From the NCBI GenBank assembly GCA_947568835.1, contig OX387604.1:7843860-7907859 (forward strand): a stretch of DNA of 64,000 bases. Reading direction: 5' to 3'. Shown piece by piece: positions 1,375 through 49,105 of this stretch. Both the position numbers and the translations under genes were made by a program. The stretch is from Protonemura montana. Its lineage: Eukaryota > Arthropoda > Insecta > Plecoptera > Nemouridae. Under the pieces are notes generated by a model. The model searched no databases. It had not been told where the DNA came from and was given only the letters and a program-made list of their open reading frames with translations. Every line of letters begins with the position of its first letter. The first letter of the stretch is position 1.

Positions 1375-3200
1375 TCAAATGATGATGGCATCGTTTATCA
1401 CTGTTGCTGTGACTGGATTGCGTACCATTGACCTGTGGTCTCCTTCCACCAGAGTAATGTTGACTGTATGCTTGAAGAACTGAAATATCGGAAAAAGATA
1501 AATCATTGGAACAAGCTGTTACATAACAAGTATATACCGTGAGCTTGCTTCGAGGCGGTTTTTATTTAGGAGGTAAACCGATCGACTATGCTATGCTTAC
1601 CTGATCCAAGCCGCAGTTATCGTGTTCATTACCCCCTTCCATTGGTCGAATGAGGTGTACGACCCCCTGAACCAAGCTGCCCGATGGCGTGTACTCCAGG
1701 AGTGCACTAATCCTCTGGAAGATGGCCTCGAGAGCAGCAGCCAAATATTCTTTGTTAAGATTTTCGGATACTGAAGAAAGCGCCAGCTGCAGACGGGACT
1801 TCCAGTCCGGCAAACCCGTCAGCTCTTCTCGGATCTTAAGACAAAAAAATCTAGTCAACAAGAGAATTACAGTGTTGTTTTTTTAGACTCGAGGATTTTT
1901 CTAACCTTTGCACTAGTTTTGAAAAAGAAAATAGTTTTATTAAATGCATGCTGCTAAGAGAAATCGGTTTTACTAATGTTTCGTGAGATGTACTTTATCA
2001 CACGCGAAAGCCCGACTGACTTGCCTTCTTTAGCAAGAACCAAATAAAAAACTTGCCTTAGCATCTAACAAAAATCCACAGCCAGCTATGTACAAAATGA
2101 ACGAAATAAAATTACAATGAAATGACAATAAAATAGCAAGTTCTCTTGAAAAAAAACACAACCAAACAAGCCTTACACGATAGAATTTTTTCTCATCCTG
2201 TTAATGTCATCAATCGCAATTTTACCTCTTTGCAACTCCAAGTCAAAAAGTAATAAAAACACAGCATAAAAAAATTCTAAATCTCCCAAATCTTTTAAGA
2301 AATTCATACAAATGTTTGCTACCTTTGGAGACGTGATCGCCAGTAGCTGTACGAGCATGTTCACTTGTAGTTCGACGCCTTCCCCGAACTGCTTAGCCAT
2401 CTGTAGCGTGGTTTCGGGGGCTCCATCCAACAAGAACACCTGAGTCTTATCGCCGAGCGTCTCTAGCTGCCGGGCAATTTCCACTGCCAGGGGCCCGCCC
2501 CAAGACGCACCGACGAGGTTGTACGGGCCATCAGGCTGGGCAACTTTCACGTGCTGCAATCAAAAGTTGACGTTACGAAAACCAGCTAAGGAATCAAATG
2601 TAAAGTGCTAAAAAATTACATGTATGTATTGACTTGTTGTGTTTAAAGCCACACTCTTGACAGTGGGCCCTGTGGTTCTGGTGCTGGCTAAATATTACAG
2701 GTTATGATAGTCTGTGTCAAAAAAAATCGACTTTTTACATTTTCACTGTTTTTTTTCACTGATTTTTAACGATTTACTATTCAAGGTCTATGCGTTTAGA
2801 GTTCTCCATTCAGTGTTTAAATTCTGTGTTCAAATTAATGAATGATGTGCAAAATCTTGTGCATTTACGACACCAGCTGTTGCGTCAACATAAAGTCCTA
2901 AATCTCTCTCCCGAACGAACAGAGTGCTCATAACAGGTAACTTAAACGTCATAAGAAATAGGATGGGGGGGGGGGGGGGGGGGGGTATGAAATCAATCCA
3001 TTAGTGTGTCCTTACCTCTGCCAGCTTGATGGCTGAGCTGACGATAGACGTGTCGCTGCTATTACCAAACTGAGCACAGAGAGTGGGGTACATAAGACTC
3101 CTCACTAACGGCTTAAGTAGAGTCTCTCCGTTCGAGGCACCTTGCAAGCCAGACACGATGAAGATCGGAGGGATTTCACGCACTAGTCCTAGACCAGGAC
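1375..3200 (-). other. Thioesterase (TE) domain, catalytic triad intact
   Basis: Exons 29-32, about residues 1940-2185. PPIFIVSGLQG begins the alpha/beta hydrolase. The nucleophile elbow is GASWGG with S2013, the acid is D2039 in FLLDG, and the histidine is H2166 in VEGDHR; all three match the human triad S2308, D2338 and H2481. The C-terminus is 19 residues beyond that His, as in FAS thioesterases. Confidence 0.88.
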
Positions 3201-4283
3201 TCAAAGACGCTAACTCAACCAGTGAATGTGATTTGAGTTCAGATACTTCTGCGCCAAGCTCGATAAGCTCATCCATGGATGATGGAAGGAATGCTGCGAG
3301 TTTTTCAAAGTGTGAAATGCCTCCAATATCTGCAAAGAAAATGTTTCGGTGCCATTTTTATATTTCATTAAAGAGAGGCCAAGCATGAATGGTAGTTAAG
3401 ACAGATAAGAATTCTATCTACCTGACCCGCTGTTTACTAAATCTTCTGAGACGTAAATAACAGAGTCGTTGGTTTTCGCAAGTATTCCGTCCAAAACGCC
3501 GAGTGCGCGCCAAAGATTGCCTTCTTTGCCGAGATTGTCTGGCCAGTGGACGGCAAGCGCCGGAAGTCCGGCCTGTCGGCGTTGGTCGCAGAGCGTCGCA
3601 CCGCCGTCGTACAGGAGGCAGACGAAGTTCGAGACAGAAGTCAACGATCTACACGACACGTCCAAGTTGCTGATGCAGCTGTCGCTTAGACGGCTGCCAT
3701 TTGAGCACTCCTGTCAAACATTTTCATTAGACGAATATTAGATTCTACCCGTCTCTGATTAGCAAAGCAAACTATTAACTAACTGTAGTTAGGGAGACAA
3801 CATCTTGAACACCTAATTGGCAGTTGTATAAAGTGACCTTGAAAGAAAAGTCAAGTAATCTCTAGCTTTCTTATTGGCAGATGGCCAAAGTGGCCTTGGG
3901 ACGAAATGTATAGTTTCTGATTGGTCTTACTGACTCGCTCGTTCTTAAAATGAATTGTCTGGTGACCTTGAGAGTTCCTATTGGCTGTGCCAATGCCATT
4001 GAAAGCAGCAACCAATCTCACCGAGGGCAGGACGAATACTGCAGAGAGTGCACCGAGCGAGCAAGTCTCCTGTATGATGCTGGATGCTCCTTGAAGTGAT
4101 GTAGCCTTGGAAGAAGAGGCCAGTAGGACCTGGGCCCCATGGTGCTGACGAAGAAGACCAATTCTTCTGGCCACGTGACTTGAGATTGTCTGCGACGGCT
4201 GCGCGATTATGATCTTGCTAGCTCCTCGAGCTACCAGCCATTCTGCTAGGTCGAAGCACAGTTCGGCGCGGCCACCTTAAATG

Positions 4284-4317
<34 letters not shown>

Positions 4318-7300
4318 GTTTATTGTCTGAACTAACATAACATGTTATACAAACTGCAGGGTTTTTAAAACATAAGTTTAATTTACAATCAGGTAAATAG
4401 TATCAAATAATTTTATCGCAGATGGTCACAGTATTTATTCATAAAAAAAAAGCGCTTTTCAATCAAATAATTGTTTAGCTGCTAGCCAATTTGGTTGTTC
4501 CTTTATATATATTAATTACAGCCGGTAGCACCTGGTCAAGTTTTGTTCCTCCGTGAACTTGATCGTGTCCTAAATTAGCTTTTATGTTTTCGCACGGTGT
4601 CTTTCCATAGTCAAATAGCTATTGCTAAGTCATCATCGTCATTTTCCATAGTGACAAGCAGATAAAGACTGCGAACGTGATGACACGATCAAAACTTTAA
4701 AATCGTGTCATAAATTTCATCACAAAAAGTTCATTTATGATTGGAAACGCTTATAAGCAGAGAATACGTTCGTGGTTTGAAATACGCTAGCTCATGAAAT
4801 GATCACCAACCAGGGACACTAATGGTACTTTTAGTAGTTCGATAATCAATACACCTAATAGGATGACTTTTTTAGGAGGAATTTGTGTCCATAACAATAT
4901 AATGTACTGCCAATTACGAGCATTGGTAATTTAATTAAAAACTAATATGATACACAGTTCGCTGGCTGTAATTGTTGGGACTCTGTTGGTAATTTCAGTT
5001 GCCAAACAAACTCCAAAAGCATAGAAAGTTTGTCTGGGTATCCAGCATGTACAGAACAATAACATAAAACTTACGACTGACAAATGATTTTGTCCGTATT
5101 ATCGTTGCGAGGCGAGGGGTTCCTGACAGGATTTCTATCGGGATTTCTGGCAACTAAACCTAAACTCACCAACAATGAGGTATGAGCTTTCAGCGTCGCA
5201 CTGGAATTTGTTGCTTTCTTCTTTTTTTATCGAATCGTCTTGCGACGTAAGTTTCTTGTCGTTTCCAACTGATAAAAGAACCTTGCCAATCTTGTTTCCG
5301 TCTCCCAGAAGCCTAGAACAATGTTTGTTTCATAATTGTTTCCTCTTTTAATGAAGCACATGGCCTTACACCACGGGTTACCCACTCACCGACACTAGGA
5401 TAGACGATTTATTTTAACCAGTCAGATGGCTTGCAATGTAATTACATATTGTTAGTCCCTTAATCTCGTGCTGAAAACTAATTTTGAATCACTGAGAGCC
5501 ATCGATCGCTGACCATGGGCGTCGCCTAATATTTTGAGGTATGGAAGGGTGGAAGGGGGAGAGTTTGACGGACCGAGAATAAGTTTAACGTACATTATTA
5601 TTAACGAGAGTTTCTAAACCAACTAAAAATTGACTAATTGAGGATAAGCGACAGAAATAAGTCACTTGTTAATTCACTCAGTTATTTTTCTTAACCATGG
5701 GGACAAGTGCCTTCCCTCCTCCCCCCCCCCCCCCCTTCCGTATCACCCTCAATCTCCAATAAGCTCTTATGTCGATAACAGAACATGACCCCGTCCTCCT
5801 GTCGCTAAATCCACCCAAAAATCAAATGATACTTGAGATATATCGAGTAATGTGGCTATACCTGAGAGCCCCGTCGACCTGTTTTTTGGTAAACACAGTA
5901 CGGTCCAGAGGACGAACTACCCCTGACTTGATGCCCTCTTGCATAGCAGCATGAAGGCTCTTCTTCCATTCCAGGTTCGCGTTGAACAAGTTATCGGAGG
6001 CTACCCCGAAGAACGAGGTGCTCTTCAGGAACATCGCCATGCCTAAAACATAATCACGTGTTAGAAGAACTTACTTCCAGTTTTCCAAAGATCAACACAT
6101 GACTCGATAATTTAAGCACTTTATGACAATGATGATGACTGTGGGTATGATGATTATAGTGACTATTATTATGATGAAGGGCTATTATTTACTGATATAA
6201 CACATCGTATCGATTTAAAAGTTTCCAAAATGAAAATAAAACACAACTAGTGGCTCAGCCCTTTCCCCAGCTGAATCCTTATGATCATTTCGTTTCGACT
6301 AACTCAAAAATATGCCGTTCCAAAGAGCTAATAAATAAAAAAGTAAATTAATGTTAACACCGACACAAGCCTTGCACAAATAGATATACTGATTAACAAT
6401 GTGCTGGTTAGTATATTTAAAACACACATAAATAAAAAACTATGTCTCCTTACGCAGTCTTATTCTATTATATTAGTTTCTATTAAAACTAGTTCAAGAA
6501 CGATTAAAATTTAGGTACAGAAAACTATTAGCAAACACTTTTATATAGTATACCTAGCTTTCCGTTGTTGAGCATGTCCACTTTTCCCAGTTGAATAAAG
6601 CGACCGTGGGGAGCAATGCACCGTAGAGAGGCTTGTAGTTTGGCACCACGAAGTGAGTTGATGATCACCTGGACTCCTTCACCTCCGGTGGCGATCAAAA
6701 GCAAAATCTCGAAGCTTGTGTCTTCCAAACTCAAAATGTTACGCTCGTCGAGCTACAATCAAATATTAACCTTTAGATACCTTGAAAACCCTGTTAAATT
6801 TAGCTATCTATATTCTAAACTCGAATTATTTAAAATTTACCGTTCTGTCACGAAAAGCAAAAAATAACGGTTTTAAGAATTCTCTCATATTTCACGGCCC
6901 CCTAAACTGTGAATCTCTGTCGAAACTATTTCGAATTTAACGTATTTTTATTCGTTTTATTTAAATAGAACATCTATTTATATCTTATGCACGTGCCTAA
7001 TTGATATTAGAGACGTGTAATTTGCCAGCGCTTAGATGTTACTCTGCGGGCATGACGAGATTGTAAAGGGTCCATTACTTAGCTCTATACTCATAGTTAA
7101 GCATCATACCACTTTTGATTAACAATGTATTATGCGTTACTTAGATCTTGGTTAATAAACGGTTCTGTCACGGTGCTCCTGCAGATTCAGAGCATGGCTA
7201 AAATATTCTTAACCTACCCACATCAGCATCTCTGATAGAAGATTTAACAAACAGGACTCACTGTGAGTTAAAAGAAAGTTAACAAAGAGAACCGAGGGGC

Positions 7301-10300
7301 TCAAGAAGTGTCTGTAGTCGGTGTCGGGTGCCTTGCAAACTGGCAACTGAAAAATGTGCTTGAGACAGATTTCTACGTTTTCTTAATTCTGTGTTTAAAG
7401 AAAAGAAAATCTGTTTCCAAAATGGAGTTTGAATTTTTAGTGGGGTCCAACTGCTTCCAGACTTAACTTAGATAACTCCAAAAACTCAATACAAAATATG
7501 TAAAAATATATTCTTTAATCCAACTAATGGACGTACAATAGAGAGCTTGGGTTGTAAAATTCGAATGTCGTAAGACTAAAGTAAAAATTGTAAGAAAATC
7601 ATGATACATATTATACAAATTCCCCACATATCTCACCCCCCCCCCCCCCCCCCCCCCCCACCACTACTTTCTTCAAACACTATCTCAAGGATGCATAATT
7701 TTTTGCAGCCTATTGCGTTATTCGCGTTTTCCATTTCCTATGACTTTCAATACCCAGAAAACAGAACGTCAATTGTTACCTCACTGTTCTCTGTCGAAGC
7801 CAGTTGGCTCGGTCACAAGGGGATGGGGTGGGGAGGGGGGGGGGGGGGGTAGAAGAGCGGGGGTTTACCTAACTAGGCCACGAGTACATCACACAATACG
7901 TCAGCTACGCCACAGTATATATAATTGTTTTTTTTTTAGATCGAAAAAGTCACTGGGGTGCAAAAAGATCTAAAGAATCATCGTAACAAACTTTAGCTAC
8001 AGTCATCATTAAATTTAAAAGATTTCTTGCATATTATTATTATTATTGTGGGGCTTAGCGTCACGTCAGCTTCTAAGCTATTTGTTCCGAATTTTCTTGC
8101 ATAAGTCCTATTCTTAAAATGTCAAGAAAATATGCTTCCACAACGATAGTCTTTAGACTCATGTCTACTTTATTTAACCTTAGGACTAGATTTTAACCAG
8201 GCAATTGTTATACTTTTTTGTGGTTCTTTTGTTACCGGAAAATTGTCAGGATTGCTCTTACCCTTGATAAAGTAACAGGTACAAGCTACAAAACGCTGGG
8301 AAATTAAGTTGTTCTTCACTTGGCATTCAAAACCCAGTTCAAATAGTTTTTGTCATGCCTCCAAAATGTCGGCAAAGAAAATTTTATTGATAGATTATAT
8401 AATGCTAATTCCCCGAATTAAATTTTATCTTGTGCCTGTGAGATTCCCAACGCCATAAGGAGTTATTTTTTAAGTGTACCTAATTCTGCCAAGTATATTG
8501 ATATAAGATCTGTTTACCTTAGGAAAGCTTTGTTTGATGAAGCTCTTTTGCTTGTCGTCAGCGACGGTCACAAAGACAGTGTTGCCCCTGCTCAGAGCTA
8601 TGGCGGTTGCAGCCTGGCCCACAGGACTGCATCCATCGTGTACCAGCACCTTTTCGTCGTCGACGAGTTTGGCGGCAAGGACTAGGGCGTAGTAAGCCTG
8701 CCAGAAAGATAAGTCGTAAGTATCATGTAGGGCGAAATAAGCATGCTTTGAAGATAAGTCGTAAGTATCATGTAGGGCGTACTGAGTTATGAGCAAAGTT
8801 CTAGGTGAGGCTAAGAATAAATTCTGGAGAAGGTTTCAAATTAGTTTTGGGTGAGATTCTGAGTGGGCCCTAGCTGAAGTTCTGAAGCAATGAGTACTGG
8901 AAGTTCCCGTACCGTGGCGTAAGCGAGAGGAACGGTCGCAGCCTCTTCCAGGGTCCATGCGTCAGGAACGTGCCACGTTAGGTACTGGTTCGGGTTGAGA
9001 TGTGTGCTCTTCGTCCCCGCTTTGGCTACGCCCATCAGACGATGTCCAGACGAAGAAAACCCGGAAAACTCCAGATGACCAAGGTCGCAAATACTCTGGG
9101 AAAATAGGTGTATTAATAAAAGATTGTTATTTTTCAGACCGGCGCCATTAGACCAGTGCCACGTGGCCAGATGACAAAACAGTGCGTCTTTAAACGCCAA
9201 TAATAAATCAATCAAAAATTGCTTTTGAATTCAATTATTACCAGCTGTTCTAATTGCTTGCTCTTGGATACTACGTCCGCTCCTGTGTCTTGTAAGTTGA
9301 TTCCAAGGTAGTGCATTTTTATTCCTTCTAGGCTGTAAAAACAAATCAATAACGTCACTTTGCTATTCCAGTAATATGTTGTTAGTGTTCGATGTTTAAT
9401 GAATAATTACAGCTATCGTATTATTTACTTTTTGAATGGCAAGCATCCTTCGGTTGGTGAGGATAAAGATCCTGTTGCCTTTCCGAGAGAGAGATGTCGA
9501 TAACTTCCCCAGGCGCCGTCTTTATACACGTTTATCGCTAAATCTTGGGATAACTGTTGGCGATATAGATTTTCTTTGAGCGAAAACTTTGGTGCGTTGG
9601 GATCCAAGATGAATACAGCTCTAAAATATTGACAGAAACTGAATTAACGTTAGTTTTTAGATGTAAGCACACAGTTTTGTTTCGGTATACTCTGAACGTA
9701 CTTTATTTGTTTGTTGTGTTTGTGTTGTTTGTTAATCAATTAATTAATTGTTAAATTGAATATTTAGTTAATTATTGTTTTGTGATTACTTAGTTTCATT
9801 GGGTGAAGTAAAGGTGTGTTTATTTCAAATATTACGCTTGACATGATGAGTATTTTTAGATATAAACAATTACAAACTGTTTACTAAATTGACTTTATAG
9901 ATAATAGGGGGAAAATTGTGAACAAACCTAAGGTTGTCAGATCCCGACTCTTTGATGAGGTTGTTCACGAAACTGTGGATTCCTTCTTGAGGGGTCTTCG
10001 TGCTGACCACGTATAGTTTTTTGTCGTCTTTAATCTTCAGAATAGTTTTCACTTGCTTGCTCAATGTTGCCTCTTCTCCTGATAGGTTCAATACATTTGA
10101 AGTCTTCTCAGTTATTTCGACAGTCTACGAGAAAATTGCACGTTAAAATGAAATAAAATGCACATTATACGTAAAATCAACGATATTATGACCACATTAA
10201 ACATACTTTTTTGAGAAGTAAGAGTCTTTGTCCTTCGCTTTTCTGTTGGGAAATGAGCGCAAGACTGCTGTCGATCTTCCACGTGTCTTTCTCTGCCAAT

Positions 10301-13300
10301 CGAACTAAAAGGAATGTCGCATTTCCTAGCAGGGAAATTGCGCTGTTGATCACAGCCTTCGTGGCGATAATCATGTGGGCACCTGGCTTGTCACCCCCCG
10401 GCAAGACTGTATTATTAGACGATATCGAGTTCACGATCGTCTGGAAGAAAATTCAGCGTGTTAATCATTACTCTATTAAGATTTCGTGCTGAGCTGTTTG
10501 CACGATAGTCTACCAACTAACATCATAACGTTTATTTAAAGTGAGAGTCTCAGCGCTGATGTTAAACTGCCTTAACGAACATTTCCAAACGAAGACTATT
10601 TCATAGACAAAAAAGGTGGTCGCCCGGATATAGAGCGAAAATTAATTTTGTAATTTATCGCAGATTACTCGCATTTGAGACTGGAATTAAGTTTTTTTAA
10701 TGCTAACCTCAACAATTGATATACATGAATCGATGTTTTGAGTAGTAACTTTTGTAATGTAGAAGTTTGTTAAAAAGGACAACAGCAAGCACTATCTGGT
10801 GGCCACAACCGTCACCGCGTGTAGGATACTGTAGAACGTTTAACATTCGAGCCGTGACTCTTGACTATATATAAACCCAATCTAACATACTCGAGCGTTG
10901 GCATATGCCTTGGAAGTGGCTTCTACTTGGTCTGCAATTGCAGGCAATGTCTTCTTTTCATCCTCGAGCTCGTAGACGTAAAGTTGTTGGTAAGAGGCGT
11001 TTTCGAGAGCGATCTGCATGCTCACCGCTAAGAAATCTTCAATGTGCTGCAAAAAACCAACCCAGTGAACGTTTTTTACCAATCTAGTAAGCCAAAAGAC
11101 ACTATGACTTATGACGCATGACTCAATACTAACATTAGATAACATACCTGGAGTCCCGTGCTGTTGTGATGAATGAATTTGACAGTCTCGAGAATAAAAT
11201 TAGTTTTCGCAATTACTTTTTCGTCGATGGGATCGGTCTTGAGGCCACGAATTTCGACTCCTCCAGAGTGAATGACTCCGATGGATCTTTGGGCGATTGC
11301 CTCAAAAGATTCGCTCGTTTCAAGATGAACGGCTGGGTTAATAACAAGCTTCTGTATTGCAACTGGTTTCTGGAGACTTTGGTTGCTTTCAGCTGACTGG
11401 AGTATCGCAAGCTGCAGCATTGAATCGATGAAAGTTATCCAGTTACCTCTCCATTTCACCTGGCTTACACATCCTGCAATTAAATTAACACAGTGCGTTA
11501 GACGAAATTTGGTAAAAGAATATGGGTGAATATCACTTGCTTATCACACGCACCTTTCTCTCCGAGTCTAGCCGATTCAATTCCCCTAAATAATCCAGAA
11601 TAAGAATATCCGCGGTGCTCCAGCTCTCTATACACTTCATCGCCGGAAATTTCGTCAACCGACTCCCGACTATCCGAGATAGATTTGACATATTCATCTT
11701 CGATCTTCTCCGGTGTCTTTATCTTGCCAGAAGAGAGAAGTTCTCCGTCCATCGAGATTTCAAAGTCGCCACTTCCTCTCTGAAGAAGCACATAAAGCTT
11801 GACCGATCCTCGTTCAGGAATCTCAAGCTCCTTGTGGAAGGTGACGTCTTCGAAAACAACTGGTAATTTGTTGTTGGTAGACGATTGAATTTGCTCGAGA
11901 GTGTCCCAAACGATTTTCTGTTAACCAACGGAAACCGAGCGATAAGTTAGCTTTTCTCTTGCAATTAAGACGTTAATTATCGTGCAAGGCGTGCATTGCC
12001 ATCACTCACGAGATACGCTGCGACAGGGAAGATGATCCGACCTCCGATCACGTGACCGCTGTAAATCCTGTCCTCCTCGTGGTTGAGGCTGACAGTAACA
12101 TCTCGCTCGCCTGGTATACGACCGATCTGGAGACGAGAAAATAAAACTCAACGACCCGACCTTATAATCAATTGGAAAGTAATTACAACATCAAATCCAT
12201 ACAACGTTCTGAAAACGTCTTGACATCGTCCTGGGAACCTTTTGAACTCACTTACCGTGTCTACTTCGGCGGCGATGTGCCATGAGTCAGAATGCTCCCA
12301 AGTAATCAGCGGCGAAATCGACGGAGTGCCATTCGACACGGGGAACTCGATCTTCGGGTAGAGTTGGTCAATCTTCGGGAAGAGCCCAGCCAAGTAGAGT
12401 CTGAATCAAATGTTACGAGTATTCAGATGTAGAAAGTTGCTTAAGTCTGATCAGTGACAACTGACAACTGACAATTTTATATGATGATCAAGTATGGAGC
12501 AATGTTTCAAAAAACTTGTGGTGTCTCTGCACACTTAAAAAAGTAAACCCCAGAGTCGGCTCGCCACCCGATGCAAATTTTGGACTCGCTTTGATCTAAC
12601 CAAAGAAAGATTAGTCGATATCATTGAGTGATAAACGTAACAAACAGAAACATCATCGCATGTTCATACTTTCCAATAGCGGTCATGAGGAACTCCAGTC
12701 CCTTCTTGTTGCCGCGTTGCGTGAGTGGAATATTGGTGCATTCTGAGCCCATAGAGCGTCGCAGGATGGCTTGCAGTAGACCGTGGGGCGCGATTTCAAT
12801 GGCGATAGCATTCTTTGGCAGATGCACGCTGGTCTCTTCGAAGAGCACCGAGCTGAGCAAGTTGTTGGTGTGGTACTCAGCGGAAGAAAACTTGGCCAGA
12901 GGGGTGTCCCAGCGAGCTTCCGGCACCGAGGTACTGACCCAGCGCGAAGTACGTGGCTTAGGCTCAGGGATTACCTGTTAATCAACGAAATAATCAAACT
13001 GCTGATGTATACGCACGGGGCTTTGATCGATACATGTCTTTTGACACCAGCATGAAAAAAATCTTACTAAAAGGCATTATCAAAACAAAATAGGGTGTCG
13101 CTTAGCTAAACCATAAGCTAGTGAAAATGTCAAGGTCAGGAAAAGCTTGTTTTATGTACGATGATCCAAATATCAACCAATCTCACATGAGATTACAGTC
13201 AATCACACAATATGTGTGATTATTTCTTGATAGCGACGGTTCGACAATGACAAACTAGGAATATTTCAAAGCGCCGATCTTTTGTTAGAGCTACTGACGC

Positions 13301-16300
13301 ACCTCTTTTAGGTATTTAAGTAACGTCGGGGCGGCTGGCGCAATGTATTTGCTGTGGTAGGCGATGTTGGCGACGTTCACGGAACGTGCAAAGACTCCAT
13401 TGGCTTGCAGAGTAGCTACGAACTGCTCCATCTGTTCGGAGGGGCCAGAGATGGTACTGCTGTCAACGCTGTTGTGGCACGCTACTTCGATGCCGGGTGG
13501 GCACAAAAGCTTCACTTTTTGGTAGCCAAGACCTGTCATGATACAAGCGCGTTAGTTTCAAATATCAAGTAAACAATGCACACGTGTAATGGTACCAACA
13601 TACTGGTTGCTTGGCCTAAACGGAAATCCCGCGCATGGAGTTGAAATTGTCTGTGTCATCAATAAAATAAAAAATAAAATAAAAAATTAACACTGGACTC
13701 GGAAATTCCGTGCACAGATATTTCGTGTTCCCCGATGGGAATCTTGGTGTGAAATTGGAGAACGAACGAGGTAATCTAGTTTAGAATTACCACTAAACCT
13801 ATTAAATTTGCTATGATTTACTATACCTATGTTTAGTTAACTGTTTAGTTTAAACTGACTAACAGGTGACATTCAGGAGGTGGTCAACCACTTTTCTGTT
13901 AGCAAGCATTGTTAATAGGTGGCGAAAAATAGTTAATTCGCATCTTACTGATTTTGAAATATAAAAATGGTCTGTGTTCAAAACCACACAACTCATGTTA
14001 AGCAGAGAAAGGTAAAAGCGATCGTCAGATAAAACCATGCTATAAAATACATACAAAATAAACAATTAAATAGTAAACTTCGTACCAACAGCAGCCATCG
14101 TTCCCTTGATGAGCTCTGTTTCAATCGACGCTTTTCCTCGTGAGTAGGCGGAAAGCATCATCTGTTCTGCAGTGAAGCACCCATCGGCATAAGCACACCC
14201 AAGCTCCCCCACTGAATGGCCGATGATGCCGTCCGGGGTGACGCCAATCGCTGTGAGCACGTCTACCAGGGCAAGCTAACGGAAAACACAAGGTTGTTAC
14301 AACTAAACGTTCGGTGTGTTGGTAACGCCGGTTCTCGTGAGATCACCTAAATTCTGATACACTGCGCTGGGTCAGGAATTTGATGGGAGACCATCATGCT
14401 TTTGGCAAGTTCTGTTCGGGAGAGAAGTTAAAGGATTGGAGTGAGTACACCAACTTCACCCGCCTTGTTTGCACACCTCTCAACACAATGGATTTGTGGA
14501 GGAATCCTTTTGTTAGCATTGTACCTTCATACGGATGATACGTTAAACCGGTGCCCTTGGTACCCTAAACCTCTTCGACATGAGCAGTGCCGGCACCGGT
14601 TTTTCTCTCTTCCCTTCTAGTTTCGGTAAGGTTCATCATCCCTATCTTCATCACTATCACCATCGCCATCAACATGGTTACCAACTCATTCACGGACGCC
14701 ATCAGACCAGTGACATATAATAGGGCTCGTCGTCAAAACAGTGCGTCGTTACACATCACAAATCAATCGTCAAGTTCAAGTCATCATGACGCTACTAAGT
14801 TATCGCCATAAGATGGGGCGGGCTTTGATTTAAGAGTAAGCGACGTCGGAAAATTCAGCAAATGTGTAAAATACATTTTTTTACCCCCCAAGCTGAACTC
14901 CTACCAATACATTAACGAACTTACACCAATAATTATAGCAATTTAATATCACGCTCTATCACGCTGCATTCTTTGACCAAGGGGAGGAATTAATCTCAAT
15001 GACTTCAGACGTGAGGTGGTTGGTTCACTATCATTCATACGAGGGTTAAACTTGCTTACGTCCAAATAAATAACTCAATCCGGCTCTGAGAGATAGTGTT
15101 CGTTTGACCCACTACCGAAAGCGGAGTTTTCATCTTTTGGGAGAAAAGTAATACAATAAGACTTTAGATTACCTGAATGGCAGCGATTCCAACGAACGAA
15201 TGCAGAATGTTGTCGAATATGGTCGGGTCTGTGGTCGTAATTATGTGTTTCAAGTCGACACCTTTCGGCTCCAGAATTGCGTGACACTTATCGATGGACT
15301 CGGCGAAGACCGGCAGTTCCATCAATTGAGTGCCCATTCCAGCCCATTGGCTTCCCATTCCAGAGAAAACGAACCAGATAGGTCTCTTGGAACCATCGTA
15401 ATGCTGGACAGAATGAAAAGGAATATAACTGCTGTTAAAGTGTAACATATTACTTGTTTAGTAAAAAGGATGATATATTATGTATGAGTTTTCTCATTTT
15501 TGTCTTAAAAAATGGACACCAATCGCTGATCTCACTAGTCACATTAATCTCGCCATGATTGCATGGATGCCAAGCCGATTTTTGTCAATACTTTGTAAGC
15601 AATACCTGCATCTCTCGCGTCTTCGCTTGTCCTGGCTCGCCATCGCTGAGCACAGTATAGCCTCTGTAGATGTAATTTGGTGTGTTTACAGAATAAACAT
15701 CCTGCAACAACCTGACATACTCCGGGTCGACAGGCATAGATTCCACCTGCAAATTACAGCGACGATTAGCCAAGGATCATCGCCATGAGGACCCGGGAGG
15801 TGGCATTCTATCCTTGCTCATTCGAACCAGGATTCGGGCAAATAGAGTTTCATTCCTAGTCCGATTCGGAAATGTCATTCCAGTACAATACGAGTGATAT
15901 ATTTTACTGTACAATTGATTAGCAAACAACACAGTGATACTATAAAACTTTTAATATTGATTACCTTTGTGAGAAGGCGGTCCATTCCCTCCTCCGTGCG
16001 ACTCGACGCTACCACAAGACGGGGCAGGCCATCGGTGAATTTTGGTTTGGGCTTAGCGTGAGATCGAAGAAGCAAGTGGCCGTATTCACCAGTAACTCCA
16101 ATGGCGTTAACTGCCACCAACCCGCCATCCCAAGGGGTCTTTTCAGACACCACCTGGAAAAAGAGAGGCTTAAAAACGCGTGACCGTGACAATGCTAGGA
16201 CAAGCACATAATTTTGGTGTCATCTGCCAAGTAAAATCACTTGGAGTACAGTGAATACGATTAGTGAATTTCCACAGTTATTTCCTGCTGGCTTTACGTG

Positions 16301-18538
16301 TCTGGAAACTTTGCAGAGGTCAAATTCTAATTTAAATTATGCAAAAACGCAGAGCATTAAACTGAACAGTGAACAACCAGAAGACTTTTTCATGTATTTT
16401 TTTAAGCATGCGCGTACGTACTTACTTTCAATTCCGCGTTACTGTCATTGACTTTTCTGATTTAATTGTGAGAAAACCAATGCATTTAAATGTTCAAGTT
16501 CAAGGGTGCTGTTGAAGGCCAGTCGATAGCAATAAAATACAGCTAACAGCCCAATGGTTGTTCTTTTTCGGACTATTTCTTCTTGCGCGAATGTAACACA
16601 GGAAGAGAATGCTAATTGGCAAAAGAGTTCCTATAGTCTTTACCTTGATCCTTCCGTCCGCCAACGCTGGAATGAGTGGAGATGGATTTTCGTAGTGCAG
16701 ATTGGGGGGAATGACTCCTGCCTGCATGGCGATCAGCACCTTGGCCACGGCGAGTAAATTTGAGGAGGCCTCTGCGTGACCGGCATTAGATTTCACTGAA
16801 CCAACCAGGAGAGGAGTTTTCCTACCAGTCACAAGGATTTTATCCATGACGTTCAACTCTACTTGATCTCCATCCTGAAACATATGTGAACGGTCAGCAG
16901 GGTCGCAACTGCCTTTGCAAGCTCTGAGTTATTGTTGAAGGACGCCTCGCTTGCCTTTCTTCCGGAGCCGTCTGCTTCGAGGTAGGCTATTGTGCGAGGG
17001 TCCACCCCACACGTGTTGTAAAAGTTCGTGAGGAGGTTGGTCAGCGGAACTGGGGAGAGGTTGCAAGTGAACTTTTCTTGGCGATCTCCGTAGAAGGAGA
17101 AGTCGGAGTGAACAACGCTAGCGTAGATTCGTTTAGCATTCTTAGACTTCTGGAGGAAAACTGCCACGACAGCCTCACTGCGAGCATATCCGCTTGCTAG
17201 CGAAACATTCCAGATCAGGCATTACTATTCATTATTACATAAACATGACGTGTTTATATTTTCATAGATATGGTTTTTATCTTACCAGCGGCATCAAAGG
17301 ACTTGCATTTGCCGTCCATGCTAAGAAGCCCTAATTGGCAGAGATGCCAGGACATTTCAGGGTGCATTACCAGATTGGCGGTTCCAACTAGAGCCGAGTC
17401 ACAACGGCCTTCTTTCATGGCCCGGTAAGCCATAGATAACCCCTGCATACCGCAGGTATCGGCAGAAATGAACGCGTAACTTGGTCCTGGAAATGACATC
17501 AGGCGCGCGGTCAGCGCATTCCGCATTGTTCTCGGTTATATAATAACATGCCCAGATTCACAGCAGTCGCGAGGGATAGGCTTCCAGGATCAATGTTTTG
17601 AGTGTATGCTTCCCGCTCCTGTCCATCGTGGAGTGATGTAGCAAAATTGTATTCTGTTGCTGGCCTGCTTATTTGAGTTAGACCTTATGTCAGTCAAACC
17701 TGATTCTAAAATTTCTCTGTCCAAAAAACCATCCGAGAATGACTGCTGTGAATATGGCAATAGCTTTTTGACGTTGCACTCTATTGTGAGCAATGTAATT
17801 ACCATGTGAATTGAGCCAGTACGAGACGCGATTCGCCAACATGGATCTGTTGTGACCCAAGATACCAAATCCATTCTCAGTGTCGACAAACATCCAGCTG
17901 TTTTCTGACTCACTGATGTAAGATCCCATGAAGACCCCCATATTGGAACCCCGCAGGTCTGCAGGGTTTACACCTAAAGGGCAAGGGTTGCTGGTCAATC
18001 ACACCAGTACCCACCGAAAAAACGTCGATCTATCGACGTTAATCTCTAGCTATACGCTCAGTCTCACCAGCATCTATGATGGCTTCGTAGGACCTCTCCA
18101 TCATGAGACGGGTCATGGGGTCTAGCGGATTACATTGCTTGCGGTGCACCCCGAAGAATGCTGCATCAAACTTGGCGCTCTTGCTAATTTTCCCAATCCT
18201 ATCAGGGATCCCTAGCTTTGCTGTGGATTGAAAACAGGTTGTCAGCACTTAACAACAGCATGGCGAAGATGGTGAGCCTTCATTTGAGTCAGCATTTGAG
18301 CAGGAACTGTCAGAAAGGGTTCTTTGGATCCTTTCCCGGGAAATTCCGGTGCTTCACTGAGGTAGATTGGCGTAGGCATAGAATTGACAACTGACTTACC
18401 TCCAGCCTTCCAATGGACGTCCTGTGTTTCTTTGACCATATCCACTTTATTGAAGAGATTATCACGGAGTTCGTCAAAGTCGTCAGCGTTCGGAAAGCAC
18501 CCACTGATGCCCGAAATAACAACTTCTTCGGTAGCCAT
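1375..18538 (-). CDS. FASN-like: Fatty acid synthase-like multidomain protein (32 exons, 2185 aa), predicted non-elongating
   Basis: Type I FAS architecture: KS, AT, DH, short pseudo-methyltransferase, ER, KR, ACP, TE. Exons on the minus strand: 18538-18400, 18220-18068, 17973-17803, 17486-17286, 17196-16955, 16874-16644, 16153-15965, 15746-15606, 15403-15173, 14275-14086, 13532-13303, 12974-12670, 12400-12256, 12126-12010, 11917-11554, 11473-11148, 11046-10891, 10440-10207, 10124-9928, 9620-9429, 9332-9242, 9095-8913, 8697-8518, 6752-6554, 6042-5862, 5312-5170, 4275-4022, 3710-3422, 3329-3016, 2553-2323, 1834-1601, 1479-1375. These sum to 6558 nt with every phase matching. The start MATEEVVISGISG is the usual FAS N-terminus and the stop is TGA at 1375-1377. 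Human FASN has 2511 residues, so this one is about 325 shorter. All introns are GT-AG except the fifth (GC-AG). The frame is open throughout, so it is not an obvious pseudogene, yet several catalytic sites are lost (see the domain entries). An expressed pseudoenzyme or specialised paralogue fits best. Confidence 0.92.
2965..2985. repeat. poly(G) tract, 21 nt
   Basis: Uninterrupted G run in the intron between FAS-like exons 29 and 30, one of several 15-24-nt G or C runs in the window. Confidence 0.9.
3016..3465 (-). other. Acyl carrier protein (ACP) region with unusual attachment motif
   Basis: A gapless fit to animal FAS ACP runs from DLVNSGS across the exon 28/29 join to ELKSHSLVEL. The phosphopantetheine motif LGLDSLM is IGGISHF, which keeps Ser (S1897) but has Ile in place of the preceding Asp and His in place of the following Leu. 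Whether a phosphopantetheinyl transferase would still modify it is open. The assignment rests on spacing rather than on strong identity. Confidence 0.6.
3422..5312 (-). other. Degenerate ketoreductase (KR) domain
   Basis: Exons 26-28, about residues 1663-1891. The family is recognisable from GNKIGKVLLSVG, from LAEWLVARGASKIII, and from CDQRRQAGLPALAVHW near the end. The NADPH motif GGLGGFG has become GGRAELC (1711-1717). About 30-35 residues usually found after the GVFNLA strand are absent at the exon 27/28 join, and no YxxxN catalytic pair is seen. I looked in the 311-bp intron 3711-4021 for a missed exon and found none. Confidence 0.75.
4284..4315. repeat. (AAT)n microsatellite beside the exon 27 acceptor
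   Basis: About ten AAT units lie 9 bp upstream (minus-strand sense) of the acceptor of FAS-like exon 27, where a polypyrimidine tract would be expected. Confidence 0.9.
5721..5735. repeat. poly(C) tract, 15 nt
   Basis: Uninterrupted C run in the intron between FAS-like exons 25 and 26. Confidence 0.9.
7636..7849. repeat. poly(C) 7636-7659 and poly(G) 7835-7849
   Basis: A 24-nt C run and a 15-nt G run about 175 bp apart in the FAS-like intron between exons 23 and 24. Being complementary, they could pair as an inverted repeat. Confidence 0.85.
8035..8070 (-). mobile_element. Short SINE-like 3' tail in the FAS-like intron between exons 23 and 24
   Basis: Reverse-complement counterpart of 61614-61650, ending in (AAT)n. 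Only the tail is recognisable. Confidence 0.4.
8683..8779. repeat. 45-bp tandem duplication spanning the exon 23 acceptor
   Basis: The 28-bp segments 8707-8734 and 8752-8779 are identical and 45 bp apart, and a third partial copy (TAGGGCG at 8683-8689, AGTAAGCCTG at 8691) lies inside the exon. The unit is a multiple of three and the frame stays open through it. Confidence 0.85.
9136..9214 (+). mobile_element. SINE 3'-tail fragment in FAS-like intron 21
   Basis: CGCCATTAGACCAGTGCC followed by CAAAACAGTGCGTCTTTAAACGCC and an (AATC)n-like end matches the 3' part of the 5S-type SINE at 34960-35392. The 5' head is missing. Confidence 0.7.
9429..11046 (-). other. Reduced pseudo-methyltransferase / structural core region
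   Basis: Exons 17-20, about residues 1126-1384. In animal FAS a degenerate methyltransferase fold plus structural core fills some 500 residues between DH and ER. Here only short matches remain: NATFLLVRLAEK resembles the strand near the end of that fold, and INVYKDGAWGSYRHL is the conserved pre-ER segment. Roughly 250 residues of the usual region appear to be missing, and I found no overlooked exon in the introns. Confidence 0.6.
11148..12400 (-). other. Dehydratase (DH) double-hotdog domain
   Basis: Exons 13-16, about residues 808-1125. The first hotdog has HVIGGRIIFP, which fits HxxxGxxxxP with H881. The second hotdog has RGYSYSGLFRGIE followed by FIDSMLQ with D1033 and Q1037, the second catalytic site. 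Both active-site motifs are preserved, unlike those of KS and KR. Confidence 0.85.
12670..16153 (-). other. KS-AT linker and acyltransferase (AT/MAT) domain, catalytic residues intact
   Basis: Exons 7-12, about residues 380-807. The AT core shows FSGMGSQWAGMG, then GHSVGE with nucleophile S587, R612 in the SRG motif, and H689 in the IAYHS motif, matching human S581, R606 and H683. The neighbouring YADGC and AAVG motifs are conserved. By family knowledge this domain would load malonyl or acyl groups onto the ACP; substrate choice cannot be told from what I can see. Confidence 0.88.
14300..14775 (+). mobile_element. 5S rRNA-derived SINE copy A (FAS-like intron 9)
   Basis: The head (GCCGGTTCTCGTGAGATCACC, then ACTGCGCTGGGTCAGG and TGATGGGAGACC) resembles 5S rRNA. 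The body (ATGGATTTGTGGAGGAATCC, GTGCCGGCACCGG) and tail (AACAGTGCGTCGTTACACAT) match copy B. It is more diverged than B, and I could not find a clear target duplication. Confidence 0.8.
16644..18538 (-). other. Ketosynthase (KS) domain, catalytic residues lost
   Basis: Exons 1-6, about residues 1-379. The fold is clearly KS: SGISGCFP at the start, NPLDPMTRLMMERSYEAI, FDAA, and KSNAGHAEA near 330-338, which keeps the Lys and the second His (H335). The nucleophile motif DTACSSS after GPS is replaced by ISADTCG: the position of the catalytic Cys (C161 in human FASN) is D164, and the only nearby Cys is C166, two residues late. The HGTGT motif reads DGSGR, so the first catalytic His (H293 in human) is D297. 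Decarboxylative condensation is therefore unlikely. Confidence 0.88.
16875..16954 (-). other. GC-AG intron 5 of the FAS-like gene (80 bp)
   Basis: The donor reads AAG|GCAAGC and the acceptor TTTCAG|GATGG. Only this join continues the KS alignment without a gap (EADGSGRK then DGDQVELN, matching the HGTGT to GDPQELN stretch). No GT donor nearby keeps the phase. Confidence 0.8.
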
Positions 18539-19200
18539 TTTGGCGATCGGTACACACCGAGGTAAAATCTTCAGCGAGCAAAAAGCACTTCAATCACCCC
18601 TCGACACTGGACTCGGCACACGAATTTGATGATGATGAACAAACGGAATGGAATGATAAGAATAGAACGAAACTTATTTCTAAATTACGATGCTATAATT
18701 TTCCCAAAGGAAAATTGAAACAGCAAAGGTGGTAAGTAATCCCTGCCTAAGACTACTAACTCAAAGTTTTAGCGTGTATATTCTTCTTATAACAATTTAC
18801 TATCTCACGACCTTGAATAATACTCGTTGTCTTGTGCCTATTGTTTCAAAGGGGATTCAATCGACAAGCAAATAAAATTAAAACGCGTAATTATTGTTAC
18901 GTAGGTGGCAAGCAGCGGGCTGAAAAGCTTGACCATTGGTTAGTTATCTTCGGCTAAATGGAATAGTTAATTATGTAATATCCAGGCGTGGGATAAAAAA
19001 ATAATAAATGCACATTTCAAAGGAAAGAGGAAGTACCGTGTTCTCAATCTGAATAACTTATCATGAATAATTCAGATAGATTTTCATAAATACCTAATAG
19101 TGAATATCTATTCTTTGAGACCGGCCATTTACGAAGTGTTTAGACTTTGATTGGAGAAAGAGGTGTAGGAATGCGTAGAGCAGGCTAGGCGCTGTTTCTG
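18539..19200. promoter_or_regulatory. Probable 5' UTR and promoter flank of the FAS-like gene
   Basis: Lies immediately upstream of the FAS-like start (ATG at 18536-18538, minus strand). A transcription start must lie here or beyond an unseen 5' intron. I see no TATA box or other element I can defend, so the call is positional only. Confidence 0.35.
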
Positions 19201-19364
19201 GGCTATCATTTACATTCCATGAAAGTGTATTTAGTACTATCAAAACGGAAGCCGGGGCAATGCCTTCTTGGGCGTAAGATTTTCTCCTTACAGCCGGTGT
19301 TTACCGGTCTGCACTCTCGAACTGGGAGGCATTCGCTCACTGGGACCCAGCTAGCTCCAGGTCC

Positions 19365-19540
19365 GGGCCCAGCCACAGGCCCAGCCACAGGCCCAGCCAC
19401 AGGCCCAGCCACAGGCCCAGCCACAGGCCCAGCCACAGGCCCAGCCACAGGCCCAGCCACTGGCCCAGCCACAGGCCCAGCCACAGGCCCAGCCACAGGC
19501 CCAGCCACAGGCCCAGCCACAGGCCCAGCCACTGGCCCAG
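19365..19540. repeat. 12-bp minisatellite, about 14 copies
   Basis: Tandem CCAGCCACAGGC units with a few CACTGG variants. The repeat is open on both strands, giving GPAT repeats on plus (19219-19668) and GPVA repeats on minus. Neither frame shows any other sign of being a gene. Confidence 0.92.
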
Positions 19541-19936
19541 AACTTTCTTTGAACAGACAGGTCGAGAATGGGATAGAAATCTTCAGCCTCAACACTGTCG
19601 AAAGCCAGCTACTTTCTAAATATACACACTTTAATAAAGAACCGAAACAAAGAATATACAAGTGTTAATAATATTAATAATAAACAGATATTAGTAATCC
19701 GAGGCGAGAGCGTGTGGACACAATATCGTGCGGAAGGATCTAGACTCTAAAGAGCATGCATGGGCAGCCTTCATGAGCGCTTAGGTCTGAGCCACGTTCG
19801 ACATGCCACCATTTAACATAGTGTTTAATTTTTTCATAAATACTTATTATTGCCCTTATTTGCTACAATGATATTAGCTGTAATAAAATGTTTTTGATTT
19901 GAGTGTTTTTCATAGATTTTTTGTATTAAACTTACA

Positions 19937-25914: not shown

Positions 25915-41318
<15,404 letters not shown>

Positions 41319-48779: not shown

Positions 48780-49105
48780 TTGATTGATTGATTGATTAGA
48801 GGGGTTTAACGACGCAATGTTTTGACAACTGGCTCTGTGGCACTGATCTAATGGTGTCGGTGAACGAGTGGGTGATGATGATGATGATGATGCGCCTAAA
48901 TTAGTCTAGAAGGGAGTAGGGGAAACCCGGTCCCGGCTCGTAGCCTACTCCTGTCGCAGAGCACCAAGGGGACCACCGGCTTAAAGTCCCTTTTCTAGGA
49001 CGGTACAACTCGAACAACAGGGTTCCTCCACAAATCCATGCTGTCGAGAAATTGATAAGCAAGGCGAATGATGTTGTTATACTAACTTCCATCCTTCCAA
49101 CCTCT
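48776..49105 (-). mobile_element. 5S-type SINE copy C, 5'-truncated, minus orientation
   Basis: Read on minus it has GGATTTGTGGAGGAACCC, a CCGGGTTTCCCC block, a (CAT)n stretch, a GTGCCACAGAGCC block and the AACATTGCGTCGTTAAACCC tail ending in (TCAA)n. The 5S head seen in copies A and B is missing. Confidence 0.82.

What the first reader, a model, noticed from the sequence alone, without database searches (positions are those of the whole stretch)
16955..17486. FAS-like ketosynthase with Asp at both the catalytic Cys and first catalytic His positions
Seen: after GPS the motif is ISADTCG instead of the DTACSSS type, putting D164 at the Cys position (C166 is two residues off), and HGTGT is DGSGR, putting D297 at the His position. 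The surrounding KS motifs and the second His are kept and the frame is open. Known: Cys-His-His is required for decarboxylative condensation in KS domains. Inference: the protein cannot elongate chains and may be a FAS pseudoenzyme with a new role. I do not recall a described animal FAS with this pair of changes.
Basis: partly seen in the sequence, partly recalled or inferred. Interest (0 to 1): 0.85.

Follow-up and report, generated by a model that had tools for sequence, protein, structure and literature searches.

The report
Insect fatty-acid synthase with dead ketosynthase
This insect gene makes a fatty-acid-synthase-like protein that has lost the chemistry for building fatty chains but kept one working-looking part, the loader of building blocks, and the same kind of protein occurs in several insect orders, probably as a helper subunit of other synthases in making the waxy coat of insects.

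Summary
In detail: D164 at the Cys position and D297 at the first-His position of a fatty acid synthase (FAS) ketosynthase (KS), in an open 32-exon minus-strand gene of about 2150 aa. It is not a lone decaying copy, nor new as a gene. It falls in one insect clade (25 sequences held, support 100) that includes Locusta FAS3, published as "AFPK ar-clade 3" and probably "cluster III". All 25 lack the KS Cys and the carrier-protein (ACP) Ser; KR is destroyed. All 25 keep the acyltransferase (MAT) Ser, Arg and His, and MAT is their best-conserved domain. Conversely, 29 insect FASs, three of them in this genome, have MAT defects but intact KS; 0 of 207 have both. Best reading: a KS-dead subunit that lends its MAT to ACP-bearing FASs, probably as a heterodimer, in cuticular-hydrocarbon synthesis. 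Anatomy and conservation are shown; partnering is inferred. Papers call this KS unmodified or the clade polyketide synthases; ten searches found no report of the dead KS. Against: 19 of the 29 come from orders where I found no dead-KS member.

The parts
1375..18538 (-). Whole coding gene: KS-dead, ACP-less FAS paralogue, 32 exons, ATG at 18538, 2150 modelled residues plus one codon (ATT), then stop TGA at 1377-1375
   Evidence: spliced alignment guided by P0002 (Cryptotermes), no stop or frameshift; exon edges are predictions, and the GC donor of exon 15637-15746 is probably a GT a few bases earlier
15965..18538 (-). Ketosynthase (KS) region, seven exons, about aa 1-440
   Evidence: Pfam ketoacyl-synt, Ketoacyl-synt_C, KAsynt_C_assoc; mammalian FAS chains in PDB
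17286..17486 (-). Exon with ISADTCG in place of D(T/S)ACSSS; D164 at 17460-17458
16955..17196 (-). Exon with EADGSGRK in place of EAHGTGTK; D297 at 16972-16970; GC donor
16644..16874 (-). Exon with the retained second His (SNAGHAEASS, H335)
12670..15428 (-). Malonyl/acetyl transferase (MAT), best-preserved domain; Pfam match aa 497-811, whose last residues lie in the next exon
   Evidence: Pfam Acyl_transf_1, 263.1 bits, the best of 11 families in the protein
14086..14275 (-). MAT exon with nucleophile S585 (GHSVGELG) and R610
13303..13532 (-). MAT exon with H687 (IAYHS)
11148..12400 (-). Dehydratase (DH) region, weakly recognised, His kept at aa 879
   Evidence: Pfam PKS_DH_N E 1.7e-7 and PS-DH E 2.2e-5
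5862..9095 (-). Enoyl reductase (ER) region, NADPH loop degenerate (GCSPVGQ for GSGGVGQ)
3422..5312 (-). KR remnant: GGRAELC for GGLGGFG, catalytic segment deleted; ACP missing downstream
   Evidence: Pfam KR matches positions 2-60 of 180, no PP-binding hit at E 0.001; alignment
1381..3320 (-). Thioesterase (TE), S1979 (GASWGG), D2005, H2132 kept
   Evidence: Pfam Thioesterase E 4.4e-8

Best explanation
The gene encodes a non-condensing FAS subunit. Its KS is catalytically dead by sequence, it has no ACP and no working KR, and what it contributes is an intact MAT (and perhaps TE). Most likely it pairs, through the KS-KS interface by which animal FAS dimerises, with an ACP-bearing FAS paralogue and loads malonyl or methylmalonyl units onto the partner's ACP. 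The obvious partners in this genome are the three neighbouring C12 FASs, which have the KS, DH, ER, KR, ACP and TE residues but a MAT without its Ser and Arg. The pair would serve cuticular-hydrocarbon synthesis. Shown here: replaced KS residues, missing ACP and KR, intact and most-conserved MAT, single clade, complementary defects. Taken from papers: integument expression and hydrocarbon phenotypes of Locusta FAS3 and cockroach Fas4. Inferred: dimerisation, the partner, loading in trans, the substrate.
For: 25 of 25 Cys-less proteins keep MAT Ser, Arg, His and the string IAYH; 25 of 25 have a gap at the ACP Ser; at the KR Tyr 24 have a gap and 1 a Val (some of the 25 are incomplete models). 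Median pairwise identity in the dead-KS group (22 of 25 after thinning): MAT 0.65, KS 0.44, ER 0.34, TE 0.32, DH 0.30, KR 0.28; MAT exceeds KS in 231 of 231 pairs. Mirror image in MAT-defective FASs (22 of 29): KS 0.64, MAT 0.40, MAT exceeds KS in 0 of 231. Remaining FASs (92 of 151, of which 5 have unplaced MAT residues): 0.585 and 0.561. 0 of 207 rows have both defects. Own genome: C12a-c read Gly at the MAT Ser and Gln at the Arg, with the tabulated residues of other domains kept. Parsimony puts 12 changes of MAT state outside the clade; at that rate 3.6 would be expected inside it and 0 are seen (Poisson 0.027; 0.0015 with the rate of a 115-tip clade that holds 27 of the 29). [quoted passage not shown] that MAT of one mammalian subunit serves the other's ACP in mutant dimers is recalled. 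LmFAS1 and LmFAS3 are integument-expressed and their knockout altered cuticular and/or inner hydrocarbons (PMC10764717, section 10 read; also PMC11855270, passages). Blattella Fas4 is one of five FASs whose knockdown is said to change hydrocarbon quantities (PMC11289792, passages).
Against: 19 of 29 MAT-defective FASs come from orders in which I found no dead-KS member (10 Hymenoptera, 6 Lepidoptera, 1 each Trichoptera, Psocodea, Diptera; by the names), so the partnership cannot be strict, or ordinary FAS is the donor there. 15 of the 29 keep the MAT Ser and lack Arg or His, so they may be altered rather than dead; this includes the MAT-defective FASs of Periplaneta, Bacillus rossius and Timema. 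The human FAS study saw ACP engaged only on the same side. No expression, interaction or enzyme data exist here for this gene. The dead MAT of C12a-c mostly stays under constraint (dN/dS 0.10-0.65 in 5 of 6 comparisons, 1.86 from 6 changes in the sixth), so conservation of a domain does not prove catalysis.
Confidence: 0.5

Rival explanations
1. Scaffold or regulator: the protein forms heterodimers with ordinary FAS and lowers or redirects its output, like a chain-length-factor partner; MAT is kept for shape, not chemistry.
For: The KS sequence is retained (44% median identity, full length) without its catalytic residues; dead KS partners that pair with an active KS exist in bacterial type II polyketide systems (recalled). 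The dead MAT of C12a-c also stays mostly constrained.
Against: MAT Ser, Arg and His are unchanged in 25 of 25 while KS, ER and KR residues are replaced and DH residues drift; a mere scaffold should not single out MAT catalysis.
Confidence: 0.2
2. Stand-alone acyl-CoA enzyme: MAT loads malonyl or methylmalonyl on its own Ser and passes it to water, TE or a separate acceptor, tuning the precursor pool.
For: TE Ser, Asp and His are each present in 18 of 25, with 3 or 4 gaps in incomplete models, and TE identity (0.32) is not below that of the other FASs (0.28).
Against: TE residues are replaced in some members, including the own-genome C1 paralogue (S, E, R). No carrier links MAT and TE. It does not explain why the KS is retained.
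Confidence: 0.13
3. An active polyketide-type synthase (AFPK), as ar-clade 3 is read in print, using another residue such as C166 or the Glu/Asp/Trp for condensation.
For: LmFAS3 was placed in AFPK ar-clade 3 and linked to hydrocarbons (PMC10764717).
Against: No ACP in 25 of 25 and KR destroyed, so no chain could be carried; Trp sits at the Cys position in 16 of 25; a Cys at the C166 position is shared by only 3 of 25 (window, P0111, P0004).
Confidence: 0.04
4. A decaying pseudogene.
For: Catalytic residues are lost in several domains.
Against: 2150 codons in 32 exons without a stop or frameshift, a second open paralogue of 2168 aa on C1, and one clade that spans five named insect orders plus this genome. 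Grasshopper FAS and elongase ortholog pairs have dN/dS 0 to 0.129 (PMC5039406, passage); that the cluster III pair is among them is presumed, the table was not seen.
Confidence: 0.03
5. Assembly or gene-model error.
For: No transcript data were available; the D297 exon ends in a modelled GC donor.
Against: Both motifs lie inside exons; a D/D relative (P0111) and a Cys-less paralogue in the same genome (C1) show the same kind of change.
Confidence: 0.02

Closest known systems
Insect FAS cluster III (Finck 2016, PMC5039406) and AFPK ar-clade 3, for example Locusta FAS3 (PMC10764717, PMC11855270)
   Same: ACP missing, DH, ER, KR and TE modified, KS and MAT regions present; the Locusta FAS3 record (P0014, whose model also carries a reverse-transcriptase-like stretch) falls in the clade with the window gene
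   Different: [quoted passage not shown] here the KS Cys is gone in 25 of 25 and the 25 form one clade. PMC10764717 reads ar-clade 3 as AFPKs with FAS-like architecture. Identity with cluster III is inferred from description, with ar-clade 3 from the name LmFAS3; their sequence lists were not compared.
Animal type I FAS (mammalian FAS; own-genome C11)
   Same: Domain order and KS similarity (best E 1.9e-110)
   Different: No KS Cys or first His, no ACP, no KR catalytic segment
KSQ loading ketosynthases of polyketide synthases
   Same: Active-site Cys replaced
   Different: KSQ has Gln and uses the His residues to decarboxylate (recalled); here Asp, Glu or Trp, and the first His is gone in 24 of 25
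KS-beta / chain-length factor of type II polyketide synthases (recalled)
   Same: A KS-like subunit without active Cys that works by pairing with an active KS: a working analogy
   Different: Separate small protein, not part of a megasynthase with an active-looking MAT

Membership tests
Condensing ketosynthase of animal FAS/AFPK | Cys-His-His catalytic triad | tested here: not met
   D164, D297, H335
Complete animal type I FAS | ACP with phosphopantetheine Ser | tested here: not met
   no PP-binding Pfam hit at E 0.001; gap at the ACP Ser in 25 of 25
Complete animal type I FAS | KR with NADPH loop and catalytic Tyr/Ser | tested here: not met
   GGRAELC, segment deleted
KSQ decarboxylase | Gln at Cys and both His (definition recalled) | tested here: not met
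FAS MAT acyltransferase | GHSxGE Ser, malonyl-binding Arg, catalytic His | tested here: met
   S585, R610, H687; Acyl_transf_1 263.1 bits
FAS MAT acyltransferase | transfers malonyl or methylmalonyl to an ACP | not testable with these tools
   needs protein
Insect FAS cluster III / ar-clade 3 | groups with Locusta FAS3 on the KS-MAT tree | tested here: met
   25-row clade, SH-aLRT 100; FastTree support 1.0 among 207 rows
Insect FAS cluster III / ar-clade 3 | lacks ACP, DH/ER/KR modified | tested here: met
Insect FAS cluster III / ar-clade 3 | KS not modified (as stated in PMC5039406) | tested here: not met
   0 of 25 have the Cys; the published domain structures were made with the MOTIF tool, so the statement probably concerns domain presence
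Heterodimeric partner subunit | physical pairing with an ACP-bearing FAS | not testable with these tools
   no interaction data

The most novel reading that the evidence does not exclude
Insects run a natural split FAS: an obligate heterodimer of two complementary, partly dead megasynthases. One subunit (this clade) gives only MAT (and perhaps TE); the other gives KS, DH, ER, KR and ACP and has repeatedly been free to lose its own MAT. The KS-dead subunit would then choose the extender unit (malonyl or methylmalonyl) and so set the methyl branches of cuticular hydrocarbons.
Probability: 0.3. Interest if true: 0.9.

Novelty: new variant of a known kind. Interest (0 to 1): 0.72.

Why it matters
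Genes now annotated as fatty acid or polyketide synthases cannot, by sequence, build chains, yet papers report integument expression and hydrocarbon phenotypes for members. If they supply MAT to other FASs, this would bear directly on whether and how MAT-defective insect FASs work, which PMC5039406 left unclear, and would give a testable route to how insects choose methyl-branched versus straight surface hydrocarbons.

Tried and rejected
Alternative exon with a normal KS motif: searched, none found in the window. Lone decaying copy: rejected. KSQ-type decarboxylase: rejected because the Gln and the first His are absent. dN/dS for the window gene: not possible, since its nearest own-genome relative (C1) is 60% identical over KS+MAT, too far for dS; dN/dS was computed for C12a-c instead, and it showed that the dead MAT there is mostly still constrained, which weakens the argument from conservation. 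A strict one-to-one link between MAT loss and the dead-KS clade: not supported (19 of 29 from orders where none was found; two of the three protein searches list only the best 120 of more than 2,100 hits, so absence is not shown). Structure prediction was not run: the protein is spliced, so it is not read letter for letter from contiguous window DNA, and the dead-KS relatives held are longer than 1200 aa. Organism: not identified; the tree places the gene near Phasmatodea and Blattodea and the C1 paralogue near Orthoptera. PMC9898505 (passages) had nothing on FAS active sites.

Errors on the way: the C5 and C12c models were translated in a wrong frame and were replaced; C12a had one frameshift inside the diverged MAT and was remodelled without it, after the table had been made with the models. 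The first residues of the C11 model are a dispersed repeat, not FAS. In one search the alignment puts a His at the MAT-His column of C12a and C12c inside a doubtful stretch; I treat it as unplaced. In one search the tree was rooted wrongly, so its lengths and P value are void; one search replaces it. The 115-tip clade behind the 0.0015 figure was chosen after seeing the data and has support 0.75. The 72-row tree is a quick LG+G4 search with SH-aLRT alone.
Full report
WHAT IS THERE. The finding lies in a minus-strand gene that fills window 18538 to 1375. Spliced alignment to a termite relative (P0002) gives 32 exons and 2150 residues (one more codon precedes the stop) with no stop and no frameshift. 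D164 (codon 17460-17458) stands where mammalian FAS has the KS Cys, D297 (16972-16970) where it has the first His, and H335 keeps the second. The GFGGxN loop is also lost. Pfam finds KS, acyltransferase, DH, the FAS pseudo-KR, ER, a KR fragment (positions 2-60 of 180) and thioesterase, and no carrier protein at E 0.001; acyltransferase is the strongest hit (263.1 bits). No alternative normal KS exon was found in the window.

THE GENOME. The window is C16 of a 258-Mb genome in 34 contigs, in which a search with the D164 exon finds seven KS active-site exons (a lower bound). Gene models give: C16 (this gene, D/D) and C1 (2168 aa, W/D), both KS-dead, ACP-less and MAT-intact; C11 and C5, with all sixteen tabulated catalytic residues; and C12a, b, c, three neighbouring copies (two on one strand, one on the other) with the KS, DH, ER, KR, ACP and TE residues but Gly at the MAT Ser and Gln at the MAT Arg, the MAT His region being too diverged to place.

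THE FAMILY. Three protein searches (two of them list only the best 120 of more than 2,100 hits) gave 228 proteins. 28 of these, P0011 and P0145-P0171, bacterial or PKS-like by their listing, were dropped before alignment; with the seven own genes 207 rows remained. Of these 207: 25 lack the KS Cys and keep MAT; 29 keep KS and have a MAT defect; 146 have both intact; 5 have intact KS and an unplaced MAT residue; 2 keep the Cys but have a changed first His; 0 lack both. The 25 are: own 2, Blattodea 5, Phasmatodea 3, Orthoptera 2, Coleoptera 8, Hemiptera 2, unnamed 3. Two pairs are probably one gene or isoforms each (P0003/P0112, P0057/P0058), and some models are incomplete. Residues at the Cys: W 16, E 7, D 2; at the first His: D 10, Y 10, E 2, S 2, H 1; second His: H 23, N 2. 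The second D/D protein is from Timema monikensis (P0111).

HISTORY. With the six catalytic KS and MAT columns removed, the 25 form one clade (SH-aLRT 100, 72-row tree; FastTree 1.0 among 207 rows). Acid-type members (window gene, stick insects, cockroaches, termite) form a nested group (96); the own C1 paralogue groups with Anabrus and Locusta (99); beetles and Hemiptera form another Trp-type group (92); an unnamed Trp-type protein (P0216) branches beside them all. The Trp type is therefore probably older (inference).

WHICH PART IS SELECTED. In the dead-KS group MAT is the best-conserved domain: median pairwise identity 0.65 against 0.44 for KS, MAT above KS in 231 of 231 pairs (22 of 25 rows after thinning). 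In the MAT-defective group the order reverses: KS 0.64, MAT 0.40, 0 of 231 (22 of 29 rows). The other FASs: 0.585 and 0.561 (92 of 151 rows). MAT Ser, Arg, His and the string IAYH are unchanged in 25 of 25. Parsimony puts 12 changes of MAT state outside the clade (at least 9 forced by well-supported branches); at that rate 3.6 are expected inside and none is seen (Poisson 0.027; 0.0015 with the rate of a 115-tip clade that holds 27 of the 29). These figures ignore uneven sampling, and the second clade was picked after seeing the data.

HOW IT PROBABLY WORKS. Without KS, KR and ACP the protein cannot build or carry a chain. It keeps a loader. [quoted passage not shown] mammalian mutant complementation shows MAT acting across subunits (recalled). 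So a subunit that gives only MAT can serve a partner that gives the rest. This genome holds such partners, C12a-c. Periplaneta and Bacillus rossius also have both kinds in my set, and Timema as a genus, but their MAT-defective members lack the Arg and keep the Ser. That the two pair is inference.

WHAT IS IN PRINT. [quoted passage not shown] cluster II FASs lost MAT in at least three orders, and it is called unclear whether such transcripts code for functional proteins; Tribolium TC000238, of very similar domain structure, gave 100% mortality on larval RNAi. PMC10764717 (section 10 read; passages): LmFAS3 is ar-clade 3, an AFPK, integument-expressed; knockout of LmFAS1/LmFAS3 altered the cuticular and/or inner hydrocarbon profile. 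PMC11855270 (passages): FAS3 lacks ACP, and the authors speculate that it cannot complete fatty acid synthesis alone. PMC11289792 (passages): Blattella Fas4 is among five FASs whose knockdown changed hydrocarbon quantities; that P0005 is the same gene is inferred from the name. PMC7510082 (passages): the TC000238 reading frame is, by the order of the table, 6450 bp, the length expected of this clade. PMC7360829 and PMC12349703 (passages) list LmFAS3 among cuticle-lipid genes. In ten paper searches of an open-licence library I found no report of the KS loss or of MAT supply in trans. The primary Locusta and Blattella FAS studies did not appear in these listings; I did not try to fetch them.

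AGAINST MY READING. 19 of 29 MAT-defective FASs come from orders in which I found no dead-KS member, so any partnership is not strict, or ordinary FAS plays the donor there; absence is not shown because the hit lists are capped. 15 of 29 keep the MAT Ser. C12a-c keep constraint on their dead MAT in most comparisons (dN/dS 0.10-0.65 in 5 of 6, one outlier of 1.86 on 6 changes). There is no expression, interaction or enzyme evidence here for the window gene.

VERDICT. Observation confirmed. The family is known; its KS-dead, MAT-preserving nature and the mirror-image defects in other insect FASs appear unreported in what I could search. A new variant of a known kind, with a testable mechanism.

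Noticed in passing
36446-37845 and 38257-39656: Perfect inverted repeat, 1400 nt per arm at 100%, 411-nt spacer, holding a reading frame of which a 192-aa part has no Pfam match: a very recent palindrome, gene conversion or an assembly artefact.
   Followed up: partly
G000 C12:5426952-5506962: Three neighbouring FAS copies (two on +, one on -) with intact KS, KR and ACP residues and Gly at the MAT Ser; a and b are nearly identical over ER (dS 0.008) but not over KS (dS 0.39), which suggests gene conversion.
   Followed up: yes
16955: Intron modelled with a GC donor (AAAG|GCAAGC) directly after the D297 exon.
   Followed up: partly
35421-35822: Minus-strand open frame with a KH RNA-binding domain, E 2.8e-16.
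   Followed up: no
14476-14562, 35135-35233, 48959-49054: Dispersed repeat reading roughly MDLWRNPxVRxVPS that also lies upstream of the C11 FAS and was pulled into that gene model's first residues.
   Followed up: no
19189-19668: Simple tandem repeat seen in overlapping open frames (GPAT, RPSH, GPVA repeats), upstream of the gene; no repeat finder was run on it.
   Followed up: no
P0033 and P0188 (ants): Two ant FASs keep the KS Cys but have Asn or Tyr for the first His (ECNSTGSK, ECYGTGSK), a possible separate KS loss.
   Followed up: no
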